This document shows, one piece after another, positions 41,433 through 49,921 of a DNA stretch of 64,000 bases. The DNA lies in contig JAOZHZ010000028.1 in NCBI GenBank assembly GCA_026014615.1, positions 1 to 64,000 on the forward strand. Reading direction: 5' to 3'. Below the pieces are notes generated by a model that did not search any database, was not told where the DNA came from, and saw only the letters and a program-made list of their open reading frames with translations. Each line of letters begins with the position of its first letter. The stretch's first letter is position 1. The position numbers were made by a program, and so were the translations under genes. Origin of the DNA: Candidatus Bathyarchaeota archaeon. GTDB lineage: Archaea > Thermoproteota > Bathyarchaeia > Bathyarchaeales > Bathycorpusculaceae.

Positions 41433-44400
41433 TTGCAGAGCGGAGCCCCAGCTGATGGAGGCTATGAACTCTTAGCTGCAGCAGAAGCCTACCATGAACT
41501 AGGAATTTCAGTATTGCCGTTCATTATCGGCATAGACGGCAAGAAGTGCCCAGACTGCAAAAACTGTCCTGAACAAAAATGGCAACAATGGCAGACCAGA
41601 CCACAGACAAAAGAAGAATTTGAAGCCTTACATATCGAAAACTATCAAATTTTTGGCCTTGTCTGTGGCACAGAGATAACATTAGATGACGAAAAAGTGT
41701 ACTTAGCTGGAATTGACCGCGACATAAAAGACCCCAAAATATCAGACGAAATCAAAGCCTTAACAAAAACAGCCCTTAACGAAATGAAGCCTTACACTTA
41801 CCGAGAAGAAACACGTAGTCAAGGACAACACTTGCTTTATTTCTCAAGAAAAAAAGTTGTAGGCAAAAAACTAAACGCTATAGGCATGGAACTCCTTGGC
41901 GAAGGCAACTTAGTTATTGTCGCTCCAAGTAGAGGCTATAGATCAGAAAATGATAACACAATAGCAATCGTTAATGATGTTGACGAAATTTTCTACAACG
42001 CATTAACCAAAGTTGGGTTATACAAGAAAGACAATCCGACATCTGGGGAAGTAATAGCCAAAAGTAAACCACAGCAAATGCGACCATGCTTTAAAAAACT
42101 GATGGAAAAAGATCACCTTGAACACCTAGAAAAAGTGTCGTTAATATATGAAATGTACTACAGCGGTATGTCAATAGCTGAAGTAGCTGATGCATTTCAA
42201 CAGAACTTAGCATGGGAACCACCACCAGAACACACATTCAACCCAAAAGAAACAGCCAGCCAAATCAGCTACACCTACAAAAAAGCGGCAGAAGGAAACT
42301 ACAGGTACAAACGTGAAACCCTACAAAGCTTAGGCTTATGCTTCTCAGAATGTCCACTATACGAAACTAAAGACTGCCGCAAACGCCACCCAACGATAGA
42401 AGAGATCACGAAACTAAACCCAAAAGCTCAACGCATAAGCCAAGGTGACTTAGACGATTTTACCAACCCAAAAGAGGCTTTGGAATACTATGCAAAACTT
42501 CTCTATCTTCACGGCTTTTCTACACGGGAAGTAAGAGGCGAATTAGAACAAATCAGCAAATACAAAGAGAGCACAAACGCATTTAAGGGAAGAATATTAA
42601 CCAACGCTAACCGAGCGAAAGAGGCAGAGCAGAAACCCGACATAGACGAACCAATTGAAAGCCAAGCAGATCGATTAGTTAAGCTATGCGAAAAAGAGCA
42701 AGTTGAACTATTCCACGACCAACACCAAACTGCCTATTCCCGGTTTGCGATACCTTGCGATATTGCTATAAATTGCGATAAAAACGATGTTTGTAGTCTT
42801 TTATCTGGCTCCCAAAAACATTTTTGTACGCATACCAATCTGGAAAACAAACAAATACAAGAACATTTAGCTGAAAAAATAGTTGAACAGCCAGATAAGA
42901 AACCACAAGTTGCGCAAATATCACAATACCGCAATCCTAAACAGCAATTCAAGATTATGACTTTTCCCCTAAGTAGTAGCCACTTTAAGAATTGGTTAGC
43001 TCTGTTAATGTGGAAAAAAGAACAAAAAACCCCAGGCAGCGAAGGCTTAAACAGCGCCTTAAACGTGCTGAAAGGCAAAGCGGTTTTGGAAGGAAAAGAA
43101 CATCAGCTTTATAACCGAGTAGCACCCGCACCTGATGGCTTTTGGTTAGACATGGCAGACGATACTTGGCGAGCCATTCACATAACAGCACAAGGCTGGG
43201 AGATTGTTGAAAACCCGCCAATTCTGTTTAAACGGTACAGCCACCAAAAACCCATAGCAGAACCTTCGGAAATGACCGAAACAGAAGCCGCACAAAAAGC
43301 CTTAAGATTCTTGGATTTTGTCAACATAAACCCACAAGATGACAGCACCAAATTAGCCCTATTAATTACTGTCATAAGCTACTTCATCCCGTTAATTGCG
43401 CACCCAGCGATAGTTGCACACGGACCTCAAGGCACAGCAAAGTCATATCTGTTTAAGGTAATTCGGCGAATTGTTGACCCTTCAAGCCTTGAATTGTTAC
43501 CTTTAAGCCGAGACAGTAAAGAGTTAATCCAAAATTTAGACCACCATTACTGTGCGATGTTTGATAATGTTTCTTACTTGACTGGTGAAGCAAGCGATAC
43601 GTTATGTCGAGCGGTGACAGGAGGGGGAAATAGTAAACGTGAACTGTTTACTAATAACGAAGATATCATATACAACTTTAAACGATGCATCGGATTAAAT
43701 GGTATTAACATAGCGGCACAACGCGGAGATTTACTCGATAGGTCTTTGCTTGTCGCTTTAGTTAAGATTATTACACGAAAAACTGAAGCTGAATTAGACG
43801 CAGAACTGACTCAAGTATTACCAGAAATTTTAGGCGCTTTTCTTACGATACTTTCAGCGGCAATAAGAATTAAAGTAGATATGCCTAAGCCTTCTAAATA
43901 TTTTAGGTTAGCAGACTGGACAGAATGGTCTTGTGCAATAGCTTTAGCACTTGGTAGAAAACAAGATGACTTTATAGAGGCATACACTGGCAAAGTTCAG
44001 TTACAGAACGAAGAAGCATTGAACGCAAGCCCGTTAGCATTGGCGCTTTTAAGCTACTGTAAAAAATACATTAACACACCGATTAATCTAAGCAGACCAA
44101 AATGGCAAGGTACAGCTACAGAACTTCTGAAAGCCTTAGAATCCCATGCTATACTTAACGGAATTATTGACACACAAAGCAAAAAGAAGTCTAACTTTCC
44201 CACAGCACCCAACGCATTAAGCAGAGCCATAAACCGTGTAACCGACGCTTTAGCCGCTGTTGGTTGTATTGTAGAAACCAAAGAAGGCACACCACGTAGA
44301 GTTATTATCGATGCGGAAGGAGTCGAGCCAGAGCCAACGCAGCCAGTGAAAGAAATCCCAAAAATGAGCCGCGACACAATGGAAGGTCACACTTGCTCTA

Positions 44401-44570
44401 AGGATTGTGGAACCTTTAGAAAAGCAGGTTGCCCAGCGCCAAGTTTTCAATACAGAGCAGAAACAGAACCAAGACCGCTAAAATGTGACGGATTCAAAGA
44501 GAAAGTAAAATCAGTTCCAAAACAGCCTGATCTTTCATTGGATTACCCGCCAATAGGGGAGGGCTTCTAA
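41433..44570 (+). CDS. Replication protein: prim-pol with C-terminal helicase-like ATPase
   Basis: A 1045-residue protein. The N-terminus (AYHELGISVLPF, a CPDCKNC insert, GIDRD at about 93, HLLYF near 133) fits an archaeo-eukaryotic prim-pol domain. A middle region has Cys/His clusters (CFSECPLYETKDC). The C-terminal ATPase has Walker A GPQGTAKS (about 663-670), Walker B AMFDN (about 707), a GLNGIN sensor and DLLDRSLLV, as in D5/SF3-like plasmid helicases. It should prime and unwind the element's replication fork. A last Cys cluster is at about 987-1000. TTG 41433. Confidence 0.85.
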   Translation: MQSGAPADGGYELLAAAEAYHELGISVLPFIIGIDGKKCPDCKNCPEQKWQQWQTRPQTKEEFEALHIENYQIFGLVCGTEITLDDEKVYLAGIDRDIKDPKISDEIKALTKTALNEMKPYTYREETRSQGQHLLYFSRKKVVGKKLNAIGMELLGEGNLVIVAPSRGYRSENDNTIAIVNDVDEIFYNALTKVGLYKKDNPTSGEVIAKSKPQQMRPCFKKLMEKDHLEHLEKVSLIYEMYYSGMSIAEVADAFQQNLAWEPPPEHTFNPKETASQISYTYKKAAEGNYRYKRETLQSLGLCFSECPLYETKDCRKRHPTIEEITKLNPKAQRISQGDLDDFTNPKEALEYYAKLLYLHGFSTREVRGELEQISKYKESTNAFKGRILTNANRAKEAEQKPDIDEPIESQADRLVKLCEKEQVELFHDQHQTAYSRFAIPCDIAINCDKNDVCSLLSGSQKHFCTHTNLENKQIQEHLAEKIVEQPDKKPQVAQISQYRNPKQQFKIMTFPLSSSHFKNWLALLMWKKEQKTPGSEGLNSALNVLKGKAVLEGKEHQLYNRVAPAPDGFWLDMADDTWRAIHITAQGWEIVENPPILFKRYSHQKPIAEPSEMTETEAAQKALRFLDFVNINPQDDSTKLALLITVISYFIPLIAHPAIVAHGPQGTAKSYLFKVIRRIVDPSSLELLPLSRDSKELIQNLDHHYCAMFDNVSYLTGEASDTLCRAVTGGGNSKRELFTNNEDIIYNFKRCIGLNGINIAAQRGDLLDRSLLVALVKIITRKTEAELDAELTQVLPEILGAFLTILSAAIRIKVDMPKPSKYFRLADWTEWSCAIALALGRKQDDFIEAYTGKVQLQNEEALNASPLALALLSYCKKYINTPINLSRPKWQGTATELLKALESHAILNGIIDTQSKKKSNFPTAPNALSRAINRVTDALAAVGCIVETKEGTPRRVIIDAEGVEPEPTQPVKEIPKMSRDTMEGHTCSKDCGTFRKAGCPAPSFQYRAETEPRPLKCDGFKEKVKSVPKQPDLSLDYPPIGEGF

Positions 44571-44801
44571 TTGGTTTTGCCTTTTGAGCCAAAATGGAGC
44601 TATAACTGCAAATATGATTTGGTTTGCAGTCGGTTTAAGTCTAAAACGGCATGTACTGACGGCGGCGGTGTCGGTTGTTATATTTGGCGGGAGTTTACCA
44701 ATCTAGAGCTCGACCCGTTTCGGAACATTAAGGATAGCCCGCATTTCCGCGTTAACAGTCCAGTTAAAGACAATTGGGCAGGTAGGAGGCGGTTTAAGTA
44801 A
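44571..44801 (+). CDS. Cys-containing element protein, 76 aa
   Basis: TTG 44571 directly follows the replication gene's stop. Four cysteines (NCKYDLVCSRF, TACTDGGGVGCYIW) suggest a zinc or disulfide-stabilised fold. Its final codons overlap the ribosome-binding region (AGGAGG) for the integrase frame. Function unknown. Confidence 0.5.
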   Translation: MVLPFEPKWSYNCKYDLVCSRFKSKTACTDGGGVGCYIWREFTNLELDPFRNIKDSPHFRVNSPVKDNWAGRRRFK

Positions 44802-44878
44802 CGGCGCAGGCTCAGGTTTCACCGCTGAAATGCCCCGAATGTGGCAGTACGCGGATTTTCAAAGATGGCTTTAGGTCT

Positions 44879-45991
44879 TTGCCTACAGGTGAAAGGGTCC
44901 AGCGTTACCGATGCGCCGATTATGGGCACCGATTCAGCAAGCACTTTCCTCAGAAAAAACTATATTCTACTAATGCCCACTTAGCCCCCGACCAAGTAGG
45001 CGCACTTGGTGCACAAGGTGCGAAAAACTTGGATAAACAAGCGCAAGAGATACGACTTGCGCGGAGAAAACAGGTACATACACCAACAGAAAACGAAATC
45101 AAAGCAGCCCCGCAAATCGAGAAACTATTGGTCCAGCTAAAGAATGACGGCAAAAACGTTGGAACAGTAAGGAATTACCGCAAAACCTTCAATCGACTAT
45201 TACGAGCAGGAGCAGACCTATTTGAACCTGAAAACGTTAAAGCTATTCTTGCCGACTTGCCAAATAAGCCGAGAGCTAAAAAGAACATGGTTGCTCAGTT
45301 GTCGGTTTGGTTTGACTTCAACGAAATAAACTGGCGCCCCCCAAAATATACGGGTGAAAGCGAAATTCCGTATATTCCGACAGAAGCCCAACTGGACTTA
45401 CTGATAGCCGCTTTAGGAAAGATAGCCGCCACGTTCTGCCAAATTCTTAAAGAAACAGGAGCAAGACCCGGTGAAATAAGCGCGGTAACGTGGGAAAGCA
45501 TAAACTTTGAAGCTAAAACACTCCGTATCGGTGCAGAAAAAGGCAGCAATAGCATGATATTACCCCTTTCAGACAAAGCCATAAAGATGATTGGGAACTT
45601 ACCACAGGGAACAACTTACATATTCAAAAAAGCAGATTCAATGAGGTCCAACCTGTACCGACAAAGACGCATAATTGCACAGCGGTTAGCAGCTCCTTCA
45701 CTGAACCAGATTAGCTTTAAGACGTTTAGGCATTGGAAAGGCACAACTGAGCAGCATAAAACTAAGGACCCTTGGCATGTTAAGCTGATATTGGGGCATA
45801 AGTCGATAACGTCAACTGAAACCTACATTCACATTGAGAAAATGCTTTACCAAAACGAAGAAAACGACAATTACATAGTCAAAGTTGCCGATACGCTGGA
45901 AGAAACTATTAAGCTTATGGAAGTAGGCTTCGAGTTTCATACAGAAGCTGAAGGACACAAACTGTACAGAAAAAGGAAGCCACGACAATGA
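44879..45991 (+). CDS. Tyrosine recombinase (integrase) with degenerate N-terminal zinc ribbon
   Basis: The 370-residue core has the tyrosine-recombinase residues: R196 (GARPGE), a Lys in AEKGSN, R284-H285 (TFRHW), H307 (LGHKS) and nucleophile Tyr316 (TYIHI). A SAM-like core-binding domain lies at about 75-150. The frame is open back to 44798 and encodes a zinc-ribbon start (KCPECGSTRIFKDGF) upstream of the first standard start, TTG 44879; the matching second knuckle reads CADYGH, with Tyr for Cys. It lies 42 nt from the right att core and should catalyse integration and excision. Confidence 0.9.
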   Translation: MPTGERVQRYRCADYGHRFSKHFPQKKLYSTNAHLAPDQVGALGAQGAKNLDKQAQEIRLARRKQVHTPTENEIKAAPQIEKLLVQLKNDGKNVGTVRNYRKTFNRLLRAGADLFEPENVKAILADLPNKPRAKKNMVAQLSVWFDFNEINWRPPKYTGESEIPYIPTEAQLDLLIAALGKIAATFCQILKETGARPGEISAVTWESINFEAKTLRIGAEKGSNSMILPLSDKAIKMIGNLPQGTTYIFKKADSMRSNLYRQRRIIAQRLAAPSLNQISFKTFRHWKGTTEQHKTKDPWHVKLILGHKSITSTETYIHIEKMLYQNEENDNYIVKVADTLEETIKLMEVGFEFHTEAEGHKLYRKRKPRQ

Positions 45992-46033: not shown

Positions 46034-46053
46034 ATCACGGGATTATCTCGCAG
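46034..46053. other. Right attachment core (attR)
   Basis: Identical 20-bp copy of the sequence at 30247-30266. It covers the last codons and TGA of the minus-strand radical SAM gene, so integration leaves the protein unchanged. Confidence 0.9.
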
Positions 46054-47162
46054 CCGTTGTACTTGAGGTACTCGAAGTCGCTTAACCTTATTTTTCCTTC
46101 TGTGATGAGGTGTTTGATTCTTGGTAGCTCTGTTTCTACAGCGTTAATTAGACCCTTGACGGTGAGGCAGACTTCTGCGTAGGCTTCGTCGTTCCAGCGT
46201 TTGGTTATGTTTGCGTACAGGCAGCGTCCCCCGCAGAGACCCAGAATGTCGCAGTCTTTGCAGGGCGCGTTCTGTACCAAAACTTTGTCCAGTGTCAGCG
46301 GGTTCGAGTTTGCTATGTGTCCTAAGTAGTACTGTTTCATTCCCCACATGGTTGGGCACGGAATGATGTAGCCGTCGGTTTGTATGGCGTAGTTTATCCA
46401 TCCGCTGCCGCAACGCATCAAACTGGGCTGCTTGTCTAAAAGCAGCGAGTTGGCGATGCCCAGCAGCGGGTAAAGCCGCAGTACCCTGCCGTTTTGCTGC
46501 ATCTGATCCACCCAGAACCGCACCAGCCTCTCAACTCCTGGTATGTAGCTTTTTTGACTCCACCGTTTGAAGTCGCGTCGGGGGTAGTCGTTTCCCCAGA
46601 ACCCCGCGTTCAGCTGCCAATGCACGCTTGAAAACGAGAACTCGTCGTTGTTTAGGAGCCATGTGATTTGTTTGTAGATGTCGGTTTGCTCCATGGCGGT
46701 GACGCGGGCGATGAGTTCTCCGCTGAAGCCGTTTTGTTTGATGAGTTTAAGGTTGTTTATGGCTTTGCGGAAGGTGTCTTCTCCGCGGTAATAATCCGTT
46801 AGAGCTTCTTCGCCGTCGACTGAAACTAAGATCGTGTGGAAACGGTTAACGTACTCTGCTGGCAAACGGTCGAGTAACTGTCCGTTGGTTTGAATCATGA
46901 AGTGCCGCGCAGGAACCTGATCCATTATTTGCTTGAGCATGTCGATGTTGAGAAGGGGTTCGCCACCATAAAATGTCACCACACAGTCAGGGTCTTTTTT
47001 GCAGAACTCGGCAAGGTACCTAACGTCGTAATCTGCTTTTCTGGGCAACGAATAATCCAACTCAAAATCTCCAAAATCCTCATCGAAGTCATCCATGGTT
47101 TAACCAAAGCAATAGCGACACTGCAGGTTGCAGTCGGTGGTAAGCACCACATGAAAGAACAT
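46035..47162 (-). pseudogene. Peptide-modifying radical SAM enzyme (SPASM type), in-frame stop
   Basis: From ATG 47162 the frame reads MFFHVVLTTDCNLQCRYCFG, a radical SAM CxxxCxxC (C11, C15, C18), then TAA as codon 21, then 354 more in-frame codons: VVTFYGGEPL, ISVDG-like VSVDGEE, and a C-terminal SPASM-like cluster region (RCGSG, IPCPTMWG, CKDCDILGLCGGRC). The layout resembles the AF1577-type group of putative peptide modifiers. A single base change (AAA to TAA) would explain the stop. If real, restart at ATG 47096 would lack the cluster motif and be inactive. It lies 26 nt after the MFS gene. Confidence 0.8.
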
Positions 47163-47188
47163 AATTTAAGCCTAAGCAGCAATCTAAC

Positions 47189-48526
47189 TTAATAGTATTC
47201 TTCCGCCAATCTTAGTGCTTCCTCATATTCCCCATTATTTTCCCGTAGCGGTCGTTCGTCTTTTCTGTCGCCGCTTTTTTGTTTTTCTTTTTTCTTTGCT
47301 TTCTCTTTTTCTTTCTGCACTTTCTTTTGTGCTTTCTCAACGTAGTTTTTAAGGTCGCGGTCCTTAAGGACTTTATCAGGCAAAGTTTCAGGTGCATAAA
47401 CCAAGGGCAACACCGCTAGAAATAGGAAGACGCTTGCAAAAGAGAAAATTGCTGTCGGCTCAATTTCTAAATAGGGTGTAAAAAATGTCTTCATAAAACT
47501 TGACATCACAAATGGTACTGAGCCCAAGAAATAGATTTTATCACTTCTTCGATTTTGTGATATGTCTCCCCATATAGTAATAAGAAAAATTACGTAGAAC
47601 ATTCCCCATGCTACTCCGTCTGCAAAGAAATAGAAGTATACTGCTTGTGAGCCAAAGAGACCCAACGCAGCGTAGCCAATGCCTATCATAACAAAACCAA
47701 TTACTGCTAACCTTTTGCGTCCCATTATGTCTGCTAAAAACCCGCCGATTACAGCGAAAACTGCAATTACAACATTCTCAAAAACACTTGTAAGAAAAAG
47801 CCACTCAGCTTCAGAATTAAATAGTTTGTTTTGGATGGGGACAGTTAAGTAGTTAACTAGTGAGAACATGCACCATGATGCAAAATATAGAAGAAACGGC
47901 TTGTATGTTACTATTTGCTTAAACGATGTGTCTTTTATGTGTATATCTGTTTTCTTCCTTTCTTCATATGACAATGGGTAAAAAAGTACTGCTCCTGCAA
48001 GCCGAATAGCCGCCAATATCGCGCAAGCTATAACAATGCTTTCAACTGCGAAAGCGCTAAGTACGGACGACAATAAACCAATTAAGAGGAACGTGATCCC
48101 CCCTATCTTTGCCCGATTTTGAATTTGGGTGTTTTCAGCATAATAGCCCATGCTACCTGGCATACCAACGCCGAAATAAGCACCGAAGAACAACGAAACA
48201 ACGATGACCCCATAGAAACTCGTGGTGTTTAATGCAAGTGGTGTTAGAGATATTAGAATTCCTACGACGATCCATACATTAAGGAATTTTACGCGGTTTT
48301 TGTATTTGCTACTAAAAATCGAACCTATGAACGCTGAGGCAACAATCGCTACCGCATTGAGTCCTAAGACAAGAAGCGTTTGTTCTGTTGAACAGTTTAT
48401 TTGATCTATTAACGATTTTAAAGCGAAAAACGCAAGTAAATACCAAACGAAAGCATTTGCTACTAATGTTACGCTTGCCACTGCCGTTTTTAAGTTCGAA
48501 TTGGCAACAGGTTTTTTAAAGCGCAC
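47189..48526 (-). CDS. MFS-type transporter with charged cytoplasmic tail
   Basis: The 445-residue protein has about 12 hydrophobic segments and the MFS inter-helix motif GGFLADIMGRKRLAVIG. The C-terminal 60 residues are a Lys/Glu-rich helix (KKVQKEKEKAKKKEKQKSG). GTG 48526. It is followed closely by the radical SAM gene, so the pair probably forms one operon; exporting the modified peptide is the natural hypothesis. Substrate not determined. Confidence 0.8.
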   Translation of the reverse strand: MRFKKPVANSNLKTAVASVTLVANAFVWYLLAFFALKSLIDQINCSTEQTLLVLGLNAVAIVASAFIGSIFSSKYKNRVKFLNVWIVVGILISLTPLALNTTSFYGVIVVSLFFGAYFGVGMPGSMGYYAENTQIQNRAKIGGITFLLIGLLSSVLSAFAVESIVIACAILAAIRLAGAVLFYPLSYEERKKTDIHIKDTSFKQIVTYKPFLLYFASWCMFSLVNYLTVPIQNKLFNSEAEWLFLTSVFENVVIAVFAVIGGFLADIMGRKRLAVIGFVMIGIGYAALGLFGSQAVYFYFFADGVAWGMFYVIFLITIWGDISQNRRSDKIYFLGSVPFVMSSFMKTFFTPYLEIEPTAIFSFASVFLFLAVLPLVYAPETLPDKVLKDRDLKNYVEKAQKKVQKEKEKAKKKEKQKSGDRKDERPLRENNGEYEEALRLAEEYY

Positions 48527-48680
48527 TTGTAAACACCTGTTAATTGATGTACCTGACTATTTTTGGCGTTTGATAGATAAGCGTTAGGTATGTGTAAAGT
48601 GAATTCTCAATTCTTAGTATTTATTCTTACGAAAATCTTTTATGAATATGTGTGCAACGCTAATACAGGAGAAAGGATAA

Positions 48681-48725
48681 ATGAAGAAAAACAATAAAAT
48701 TATCCGATCAGCTGGTTGGATGTAA
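48681..48725 (+). CDS. Candidate precursor peptide A, 14 aa, ending SAGWM
   Basis: ATG 48681 lies 3 nt after a strong purine-rich site (AGGAGAAAGGA, 48667-48677). The peptide is MKKNNKIIRSAGWM. Its last five residues equal those of the peptide at 49865-49921, with codons differing only in synonymous third positions. Its last 18 nt overlap, antisense, the end of the prenyl-synthase gene. It is divergent from the MFS/radical SAM operon. The Trp near the C-terminus is a plausible modification site. Confidence 0.6.
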   Translation: MKKNNKIIRSAGWM

Positions 48726-49820
48726 ATCCAAATCTTTTTCGAAATAAATAAGGGGCGCTGATAATAGCTTCTCAAGTTCCTCTCGTATTTTTGGTTCTAT
48801 CTTATACATTTTGACTTCTTCTAGTTCATCTGATAACAAGGTAATTACTTTTTGTGTAAGCATAGTTACCCCATCAGACCCCAAAACATTGTTAATCAAT
48901 TTCTCATGATCTTCTTCGGAAGCGAAATCAGTCTCCAACGGCAACATGGTTTTTCTCAGTTCTTGATCCTGAAGTGCATAAATTAGCGGCAAGGGGGGGC
49001 ATTCATTTTTTAACCGATTTTGCATTTCAGTTAAATCAAAAAGATCAGCAAATTCTTCCGCTATGATAGAAACGATTCCGTATGTTCTACCAAAATGTCC
49101 GAGTTGGTCGACATGTTTTTTATTTCCATCACCAATAATTGCACCTATTTTCATGCAGAGTTCAGGTACGACTGCTTTGAGATTGATTATTTTGTCGCAA
49201 TCATCGATTTGTATGTCATATTGTTGCTTCTTTAGTTGACTCTCGCATATTTCAGCATTTGATATTTCGAAAATCGCTTGAGTGACCAAGTTTTTTACTA
49301 TTTCACCTTTCTCTTGTGAGACTGTTTCGCAGGCTTGGCTTAATCGATTTAAGCCTTGAATAAGCAAAGCGTCACCAGCAAGTATTGCGGACGCAACACC
49401 GAATTTTCCATACACGGTATGTTTAGGCCCCTTTGATGGGGACCTGTCGATTATGTCATCATGAATATCCGCAGCTCCACTGATAAGAATGATAGCCTCG
49501 CCAAACGGTTCTGCTTTCTGTGGTTGGCCTCCAACTGCCTCGCAAGAAATCGAAATTAAGGCTGGAAAAACTGGCAGGACATTGCGAAGAGTGACCTTTG
49601 AAAAATGTTGTACTGCCTCAGAAAGTCGCGTGTTTTCTTTGAAATTAAGGCGTAGCGTCCTTTTTGCGTTCCTTAAGGAGATCCTTCCTCTTTCCTCAAA
49701 GATTTTTCTCATTGCTTTTAGCTGCTGATCTGAAGCCATCGTTATCTGGTTAATAAAAGTTGGAGTTGTATTAGTGTTTTGGGATCCTTCTATTGGCAAT
49801 CCACAAGCGAAAAGCATCAC
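48708..49820 (-). CDS. ComQ-like polyprenyl synthase homologue
   Basis: A 370-residue all-helical isoprenyl-diphosphate-synthase fold. The first Asp-rich motif is intact (DDIID, 121-125, within AADIHDDIIDRSP), followed by a YGKFGVASAILAGDALL segment. The second motif is altered to EEFAD (255-259), and the usual FQxxDD context is lost. Altered second motifs are found in protein-modifying members such as ComQ, which prenylates a Trp of the ComX pheromone. Its position between two Trp-containing micro-peptides favours a similar role. GTG 49820; a start at ATG 49739 is possible. Confidence 0.75.
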   Translation of the reverse strand: MMLFACGLPIEGSQNTNTTPTFINQITMASDQQLKAMRKIFEERGRISLRNAKRTLRLNFKENTRLSEAVQHFSKVTLRNVLPVFPALISISCEAVGGQPQKAEPFGEAIILISGAADIHDDIIDRSPSKGPKHTVYGKFGVASAILAGDALLIQGLNRLSQACETVSQEKGEIVKNLVTQAIFEISNAEICESQLKKQQYDIQIDDCDKIINLKAVVPELCMKIGAIIGDGNKKHVDQLGHFGRTYGIVSIIAEEFADLFDLTEMQNRLKNECPPLPLIYALQDQELRKTMLPLETDFASEEDHEKLINNVLGSDGVTMLTQKVITLLSDELEEVKMYKIEPKIREELEKLLSAPLIYFEKDLDLHPTS

Positions 49821-49864
49821 GAGATGTAGTTACTGGTTTAGAAAAAATTTTGGTAGTTTTTAGT

Positions 49865-49921
49865 TTACATCCAGCCTGCAGACATTGGTTTCAATGATCT
49901 TTTCATTTTCTGATTTTTCAT
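49865..49921 (-). CDS. Candidate precursor peptide B, 18 aa, ending SAGWM
   Basis: ATG 49921 is preceded by AAAAAAGGAGG with 9-nt spacing. The peptide is MKNQKMKRSLKPMSAGWM: a basic leader and the same SAGWM end as peptide A. It lies 44 nt upstream of the prenyl-synthase gene on the same strand, so the two are probably cotranscribed. Confidence 0.65.
   Translation of the reverse strand: MKNQKMKRSLKPMSAGWM

What the first reader, a model, noticed from the sequence alone, without database searches (positions are those of the whole stretch)
46035..49921. Candidate peptide-modification/signalling cluster with two SAGWM micro-peptides
A ComQ-like prenyl synthase, an MFS transporter and a SPASM-type radical SAM enzyme are grouped with two minute ORFs (14 and 18 codons) that lie on opposite strands and end identically in SAGWM-stop. 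Seen directly: both ORFs, their strong ribosome-binding sites, and a shared pentapeptide with synonymous-only codon differences. Known: ComQ prenylates a Trp of ComX, and SPASM radical SAM enzymes modify peptides. Inference: a prenylated and/or radical-SAM-modified archaeal signal or antimicrobial peptide, in the order radical SAM < MFS < | pepA > | < prenylase < pepB.
Basis: partly seen in the sequence, partly recalled or inferred. Interest (0 to 1): 0.93.

Follow-up and report, generated by a model that had tools for sequence, protein, structure and literature searches.

The report
Archaeal prenyl-peptide cassette with tiny precursors
Many uncultured archaea carry a prenyl-synthase-like gene paired with a tiny 10-23-codon gene whose peptide mostly ends in or near tryptophan, plus a transporter gene, and together they likely make and export a lipid-tagged peptide predicted to act as a signal or an antimicrobial.

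Summary
Convergent with the 3' end of this synthase's relatives lies a 10-23-codon ORF with a Lys/Arg-rich start, a P-[IV]-R-like motif and usually a Trp near the end: 74 of 85 synthase genes against 3.6% of control zones. With the score frozen it recurred in 17 of 20 unseen family genes of the class and in Methanomethylicota, and in 0 of 15 canonical synthases. An MFS gene lies in 80 of 82 loci. TGTNNNACA precedes 81 of 91 peptide genes. The enzymes keep the donor-binding DDxxD but lack the IPP-binding GGKRxR (0 of 104). In a sister subfamily the slot holds 55-87-aa ORFs; in 120 of 120 listed homologues of one, Lys-Trp-Pro is invariant and the last residues hypervariable, as in ComX. Best reading: a Trp-prenylated, exported peptide, probably a signal. 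Corrections: the radical SAM gene is separable and here interrupted by a stop; pepB has no counterpart found; SAGWM itself varies; 21 of 91 peptides lack Trp and the enzymes lack the indole-binding Gln, so the acceptor is not settled.

The parts
48681..48725 (+). pepA, 14-codon precursor peptide MKKNNKIIRSAGWM
   Evidence: sequence; same slot and motif in relatives
48667..48677 (+). ribosome-binding site of pepA (AGGAGAAAGGA)
   Evidence: sequence
48651..48659 (+). TGTGCAACG: one-mismatch copy of the TGTNNNACA element that precedes 81 of 91 peptide genes; TATA-like stretch just upstream and AATACAG (48662-48668) just downstream
48708..49739 (-). trans-isoprenyl-diphosphate-synthase-like enzyme, 343 aa from ATG (start not certain), predicted peptide prenyltransferase; DDxxD kept, GGKRxR absent
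   Evidence: PF00348; motifs; AF2 fold
49865..49921 (-). pepB, 18-codon peptide MKNQKMKRSLKPMSAGWM, second copy of the SAGWM tail; no TGTNNNACA within 90 nt upstream
   Evidence: no counterpart found in relatives
47189..48526 (-). MFS transporter, predicted exporter of the peptide; an MFS gene lies in 80 of 82 loci, in 77 downstream on the synthase's strand
   Evidence: PF07690
46035..47162 (-). TIGR04084 radical SAM/SPASM gene, interrupted by TAA at 47100-47102; neighbour, probably not part of the core cassette

Best explanation
This is a conserved archaeal cassette of a prenyl-synthase-like enzyme, a 10-23-codon peptide gene convergent with it and an MFS transporter gene, which likely makes and exports a short prenylated peptide, with the prenyl group predicted to go on the tryptophan near the peptide's C-terminus. 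Shown: the pairing, the MFS neighbour, the recurring peptide pattern, the enzyme's intact donor motif and missing IPP site, the upstream element, and ComX-sized ORFs with a Trp near the end in the same slot of a sister subfamily. Inferred: the enzyme binds an allylic diphosphate (FPP or GGPP) at DDxxD and, instead of IPP, binds the peptide, whose Lys/Arg-rich N-terminus and P-[IV]-R act as recognition part; the indole of Trp attacks the prenyl cation; the product leaves through the MFS protein, in some loci after cutting by a secreted trypsin-like protease; PadR proteins at the TGTNNNACA sites set expression. The variable tails suggest a strain-specific signal rather than a fixed toxin. Untested: all chemistry, export, processing and the receptor.
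For: Micro-ORF at score >=9 for 74 of 85 synthase genes against 191 of 5346 control zones and 22 of 681 3' ends of other genes; >=11 for 67 of 85 against 19 of 5346 and 3 of 681. Frozen score on unseen genes: 17 of 20 family members, 0 of 15 canonical synthases; 11 of 13 in other classes of the phylum, one of the 11 doubtful. MFS in 80 of 82 loci, in 17 of 17 new peptide-bearing loci and 0 of 15 canonical. Trp in 70 of 91 peptides, in the last 5 residues of 67. TGTNNNACA upstream of 81 of 91 peptides, 0 of 83 synthases, shuffle mean 2.0; PadR genes in 43 of 82 loci. Same-genome copies differ only synonymously: pepA/pepB tail, L050/L236 (apart from the start codon) and L101. Sister subfamily: 10 of 11 loci have a 55-87-aa ORF in the slot with Trp in its last 5 residues (which listed only ORFs with a late Trp); K, W, P invariant in 120 of 120 listed homologues of one, with hypervariable ends. 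FARM kept in 103 of 104 (one gap), GGKRxR 0 of 104. Closest solved folds are trans-IDSs and include Ord1, a Trp farnesyltransferase.
Against: No chemistry is shown. 21 of 91 peptides have no Trp and 9 have no aromatic residue after the last Arg, so Trp cannot be the acceptor in all, or those lineages have changed target. The Gln thought to hold the indole in ComQ, PalQ and Ord1 is absent in 104 of 104 family and 11 of 11 sister enzymes. 11 of 85 synthase genes miss the score: three (L082, L083, L086) keep enzyme and MFS with no recognisable peptide, three are variant layouts, three are first copies of tandem synthases, and L088 and L141 have only doubtful candidates. The motif score was made by hand after seeing the first loci and it requires an Arg; only searches are out-of-sample, and there the split between family (17 of 20) and sister or canonical-like genes (0 of 13) was drawn afterwards, by tblastn score and motifs. 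pepA's own TGTNNNACA has one mismatch.
Confidence: 0.68

Rival explanations
1. The enzyme prenylates the peptide, but not on Trp: the recurring Arg of P-[IV]-R (or a Lys, or the new terminus after cleavage at Arg) is the acceptor, and the aromatic tail is only a binding handle.
For: Arg motif present in the 91 scored peptides while 21 lack Trp and 9 lack any aromatic after it; no Gln at the indole-binding position in 104 of 104.
Against: The score itself required an Arg; pepB lacks the motif; one variant peptide reads KIQAK instead (L196) while the five variant peptides all end in WW; sister precursors keep K-W-P in 120 of 120 listed, with no such Arg motif before it.
Confidence: 0.15
2. The micropeptide is not a substrate: it is a small regulator that binds the enzyme or the MFS pump, and the enzyme makes a small terpenoid that the pump exports.
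For: Peptides are as short as known small regulators of transporters (recalled, from no call); some lineages lack Trp; MFS is nearly always beside it.
Against: Sister precursors have an invariant K-W-P and hypervariable ends, the pattern of a modified secreted peptide; peptide genes are duplicated or in tandem with the same amino acids; the enzyme lacks the IPP site.
Confidence: 0.12
3. The micro-ORF is an RNA element or antisense regulator at the 3' end of the synthase and is not translated.
For: It overlaps or abuts the 3' end of the synthase on the opposite strand in most loci.
Against: Amino acids recur with all synonymous codons in use (six for Arg, four for Pro), ribosome-binding sites precede it, and in five loci the same kind of peptide lies elsewhere, behind a protease gene.
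Confidence: 0.03

Closest known systems
ComQ/ComX (ComQXPA quorum sensing, Bacillus; PMC4008528, passages)
   Same: trans-IDS-like enzyme next to a peptide with Trp near the C-terminus and variable sequence; sister ORFs (55-87 aa) are close in size to ComX (52-73 aa) with Trp close to the end; a few bacterial loci also have the putative comX on the opposite strand
   Different: archaeal; the window's precursors are only 10-23 codons; PadR and MFS genes recur beside them, and no histidine kinase was recognised among the neighbour clusters I annotated; the 2014 census reports none outside Firmicutes
PalQ/PalX (Paenibacillus C-terminal Trp prenyltransferase, PMC10853753)
   Same: C-terminal Trp; core DNVRRFFW resembles the archaeal ...PVR..W; IDS-like enzyme with FARM
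   Different: NHLP leader and histidine kinase there; Gln next to SARM not found in the archaeal family (0 of 104)
Ord1, farnesyltransferase of free Trp (PDB 9v4g-9v4j)
   Same: same fold, profile E about 1e-29
   Different: acts on free Trp (PMC13290415, section 9); its Gln is absent here
Archaeal GGPP synthase (PDB 1wy0)
   Different: the archaeal family lacks GGKRxR and the Gln of the second motif
Cyanobactin prenyltransferases
   Same: prenylate ribosomal peptides, some on Trp (PMC10853753, part 1)
   Different: different fold (alpha+beta barrel), C5/C10 donors, typically cyclic substrates; not tested here

Membership tests
ComQXPA quorum-sensing system | IDS-like prenyltransferase with FARM | tested here: met
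   DDxxD aspartates in 103 of 104 family rows, one gap
ComQXPA quorum-sensing system | precursor of 52-73 aa with Trp within 5-10 residues of the C-terminus | tested here: inconclusive
   Trp position met in 67 of 91; length not met in the window family (10-23 aa), close in the sister subfamily (55-87 aa)
ComQXPA quorum-sensing system | adjacent ComP histidine kinase and ComA response regulator | tested here: inconclusive
   recurring neighbour clusters named so far are MFS, PadR, rSAM, ABC, amidohydrolase, leuS, MinD; not all clusters were annotated
trans-IDS-like Trp prenyltransferases (ComQ, PalQ, ChrP) | Gln immediately upstream of the SARM position | tested here: not met
   0 of 104 in the family, 0 of 11 in the sister group; 14 of 14 canonical synthases have it
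trans-IDS-like Trp prenyltransferases (ComQ, PalQ, ChrP) | transfers a prenyl group to Trp of a peptide | not testable with these tools
   needs enzymology
canonical trans-isoprenyl diphosphate synthase | IPP site GGKRxR and QxxDDxxD | tested here: not met
   GGKRxR 0 of 104, Gln 0 of 104; SARM changed
RiPP cassette | genetically encoded precursor beside tailoring enzyme and exporter, conserved together | tested here: met
   the precursor and exporter roles are inferred
RiPP cassette | modified, processed product | not testable with these tools
   needs mass spectrometry
radical SAM peptide-modifying system (TIGR04084) | enzyme intact and linked to the peptide | tested here: not met
   in-frame TAA here; linked in 41 of 82 loci, separable

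The most novel reading that the evidence does not exclude
Archaea have their own prenyl-peptide communication system: a deep family of IDS-derived enzymes that lipidate peptides encoded by some of the smallest precursor genes known, with a leader-bearing ComX-sized sister form, pherotype-like hypervariable ends, MFS export and PadR-controlled peptide promoters, and with lineages that moved the acceptor off tryptophan.
Probability: 0.45. Interest if true: 0.92.

Novelty: new variant of a known kind. Interest (0 to 1): 0.86.

Why it matters
A 2014 census found ComQXPA-like loci only in Firmicutes (PMC4008528, abstract and passages). If this reading is right, a class of uncultured archaea talks or fights with prenylated micropeptides, the precursors (10-23 codons) are short enough to escape ordinary gene calling, and the enzymes, which pair with W-bearing or W-less tails in nature, offer a ready series for finding how an isoprenoid synthase becomes a peptide prenyltransferase and how its acceptor changes. 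The claim can be tested directly by co-expression and mass spectrometry.

Tried and rejected
Radical SAM as part of the core: rejected as necessary. TIGR04084 is over cut-off in 54 of 100 relatives, lies beside the cassette in 41 of 82 loci, and in G051 (L166) and G017 (L167) remains without synthase. SAGWM as the conserved motif: rejected. Viral carriage: 71 pattern matches, none a relative. Invariant Arg as proof of the acceptor: not claimed, since the search score required an Arg. Operator pattern as a guide to further peptides: 58 of 100 genomes match, but in the 30 loci read the only further peptide I recognised was a second copy in G089 (L236). Sister ORFs against Pfam and NCBIfam: seven tested, nothing above cut-off. 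Synonymous/nonsynonymous counts over 109 pairs (463/543, expected synonymous share 0.22) lean to purifying selection, but the pairs were picked by identity and are not independent, so I rest little on them. Tail variation before and after Arg (32 of 137 against 40 of 101) is from up to 20 hand-picked pairs. Structure searches list no ComQ or PalQ; that is no evidence of absence.

Rows dropped: A1 holds 37 of the 63 synthases (L054 failed and was left out). Frames of 200 aa or less, identical proteins and two genes cut by a contig end (L136, L139) were removed before the 85. 15 already-seen rows are left out of its counts. In one search L295 (cut), two seen loci and canonical L306 are left out of the 13. 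120 of 145 precursor homologues were examined. One search printed only ORFs with a Trp in the last eight residues. Canonical controls were picked by the GGKRxR motif, so their 14 of 14 for that motif says nothing; their 14 of 14 for Gln does.

Literature: PMC10853753 read in part (part 1 of 4 and passages), PMC13290415 (section 9 and passages), PMC4008528 (passages), PMC12144867 (a search for terms: prenyl and Bathyarchae not found). Searches that showed no report of this system in their listings. The library holds only open papers and no preprints.
Full report
Observation. Both micro-ORFs are real and placed as stated: pepA 48681-48725 (+), MKKNNKIIRSAGWM; pepB 49865-49921 (-), MKNQKMKRSLKPMSAGWM. 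They are the only SAGWM-stop frames in the window, and an AGWM-stop-like pattern finds only one further match, without a stop, in the 2.6-Mb assembly. The shared tail differs only at synonymous positions. The neighbours are a PF00348 synthase, an MFS protein and a TIGR04084 radical SAM/SPASM protein. The last is interrupted by TAA at 47100-47102, directly behind its CxxxCxxC.

Organism. The genome is taken to be Bathyarchaeia: two contigs of a same-genus genome (G003) have the lengths of records titled Candidatus Bathyarchaeota. This is an inference from lengths.

A conserved slot. I collected the synthase's relatives from 100 related genomes and from named genomes, 85 distinct complete genes in 82 loci. 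On the strand opposite to the synthase and convergent with its 3' end lies a short ORF, usually with a ribosome-binding site, in most cases. Examples: MKNRPVPVRIGGWA, MKARRKSTRFTWPPLWW, MRRKQKVPIRGWTAWGF, MKKAVKRKPVRFLAWGKS; in Hadesarchaea MRSLRESPVRIWA; in a Baldrarchaeota MAG MRKRKPRPFRFRWW; in Methanomethylicota MKKYNPTPIRIWVPPLP. A hand-made score (Lys/Arg-rich start, [P/K..][I/V..]R, tail of 1-13 residues, bonus for Trp, start codon, ribosome-binding site, TACA-like upstream letters) reaches 9 or more for 74 of 85 genes, against 191 of 5346 same-sized zones elsewhere in the same loci and 22 of 681 3' ends of other genes; 11 or more for 67 of 85 against 19 of 5346 and 3 of 681. The 11 misses: L082, L083 and L086 (no peptide recognised), L037, L060 and L066 (variant layout, below), the first copies of tandem synthases in L047, L049 and L103, and L088 and L141 (doubtful candidates only).

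Out-of-sample tests. With the score frozen, of 48 unseen synthases of the same class 17 passed; all 17 are among the 20 genes that belong to the family by tblastn score; the three misses are a 167-aa fragment and two loci of variant layout (below). None of 15 canonical synthases (GGKRxR), none of 11 sister genes (below) and neither of two further canonical-like ones passed (the grouping of the non-GGKRxR genes was drawn afterwards). In other classes of the phylum 11 of 13 new non-canonical loci passed; one of these hits (L290) looks false, and the other ten belong to one tight group, MK.Y.PT..R.W..., in the family of the Methanomethylicota records, with tandem copies in several. An MFS gene lies in 80 of 82 discovery loci, in 77 downstream on the synthase's strand and in three (variant layout) upstream; L101 and L141 have none in the stretch held. 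It is downstream in 17 of 17 new peptide-bearing loci and in 0 of 15 canonical ones.

What recurs in the peptide. Over 91 peptides the length is 10-23 aa; 70 contain Trp, 67 within the last five residues; 75 have P-x-R with x hydrophobic or small. Arg is in all, but the score demanded it. 21 have no Trp (for example MAKRVKKVPIRAGP, MKKKDVPVRVGP); nine have no aromatic after the last Arg. Within a genome, copies keep the amino acids and change only synonymous sites: the SAGWM tails of pepA/pepB (three changes), L050/L236 (three changes, and ATG against TTG at the start) and the tandem copies of L101 (one change). Between species the tail changes more than the part before Arg (hand-picked pairs). 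This is the pattern expected of a specificity-bearing end.

Promoter. TGTNNNACA (mostly TGTWSWACA) lies within 75 nt upstream of 81 of 91 peptide genes, twice in 29; a TATA-like string lies upstream of 78; mean of shuffles 2.0 and 31.5. The element is before 0 of 83 synthase, 18 of 83 MFS, 19 of 77 PadR and 17 of 446 other genes. PadR regulators stand in 43 of 82 loci, mostly upstream of the synthase. That PadR binds this element is inference. pepA has the element with one mismatch; pepB has none.

The sister subfamily. Eleven more distant, also GGKRxR-less synthases (L203-L209, L226-L229) failed the micro-ORF score; nine of the ten that could be tested have an MFS gene downstream. In ten of the eleven the convergent slot holds an ORF of 55-87 aa (longest start considered) with Trp in its last five residues...VVGGWA...GASVSW...DPGWFLK...QKWPADS. 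The script listed only ORFs with a late Trp, so the ten alone prove little; but seven of them align with each other over most of their length, and the eleventh locus, L203, has MRPLRFWF. The seven searched match no Pfam or NCBIfam model above cut-off. One of them has 145 homologues, mostly hypothetical or unnamed; in the 120 listed, K, W and P near the end are invariant, as are a few leader positions, and the following residues reach 2.8-3.8 bits of entropy. The list holds close relatives only, since the search needs shared words. ComX is 52-73 aa, extremely variable, with Trp near its end (PMC4008528). This is the strongest argument that the slot encodes a Trp-modified, specificity-bearing peptide, and that the micropeptides are its reduced form (inference).

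A variant layout. In L037, L060, L066, L182 and L196 the order is MFS, peptide, trypsin-like protease on one strand and the synthase divergent (PF00089 tested for L066 only; the others show the same GDSGG motif); the peptides (for example MAKKRAVRAKAQPAFYMWW) all end in WW. In L060 no standard start codon fits. A secreted protease that would cut after Arg/Lys beside a Lys/Arg-rich precursor fits leader removal (inference).

Radical SAM. TIGR04084 is over cut-off in 54 of 100 relatives, one such copy per genome in the list; the other over-cut-off copies show no stop inside. It adjoins the cassette in 41 of 82 loci, both beside leuS and beside PadR, but the two come apart. It may act on the peptide in some species; in this genome it is probably dead.

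Mechanism and confidence. Peptide prenylation by the synthase: about 0.8 as a whole; Trp as acceptor in the W-bearing peptides: 0.68; signal rather than antimicrobial: about 0.55. Novelty: the parts are known kinds; the archaeal lineage, the tiny precursors, the convergent layout with MFS, the promoter element with PadR genes nearby and the missing Gln make it a new variant. Searches of the open literature showed no report of it.

Noticed in passing
47100-47102: In-frame TAA in the TIGR04084 radical SAM gene right after its CxxxCxxC; the other over-cut-off copies show no stop inside. Pseudogene or assembly error not distinguished.
   Followed up: partly
41433-45991: A 1045-aa protein without Pfam match and a tyrosine recombinase (PF00589) end directly beside the cassette: probably an integrated element.
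   Followed up: no
L204-L209, L226-L229: Sister synthase loci, mostly with MFS, with 55-87-aa convergent ORFs bearing a Trp near the C-terminus; one has 145 homologues.
   Followed up: yes
L037, L060, L066, L182, L196: Variant cassette with a trypsin-like protease and peptides ending in WW.
   Followed up: partly
L236 1532 (-): Orphan second copy of the peptide of L050 in the same genome, about 44 kb from the synthase, TTG start, same amino acids, synonymous changes only.
   Followed up: partly
L101 6996-7133; L292, L293, L299, L301: Tandem copies of the peptide gene; in L101 about 95-bp repeats run into the contig end.
   Followed up: partly
L232, L238, L240, L245, L256, L257: Another recurring element at operator-pattern hits: ...ATACAATATGTC followed in several loci by a GACATAT-type inverted repeat; function unknown.
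   Followed up: no
L082, L083, L086: Three loci of one genus keep synthase and MFS but show no recognisable peptide: loss, or a different precursor.
   Followed up: no
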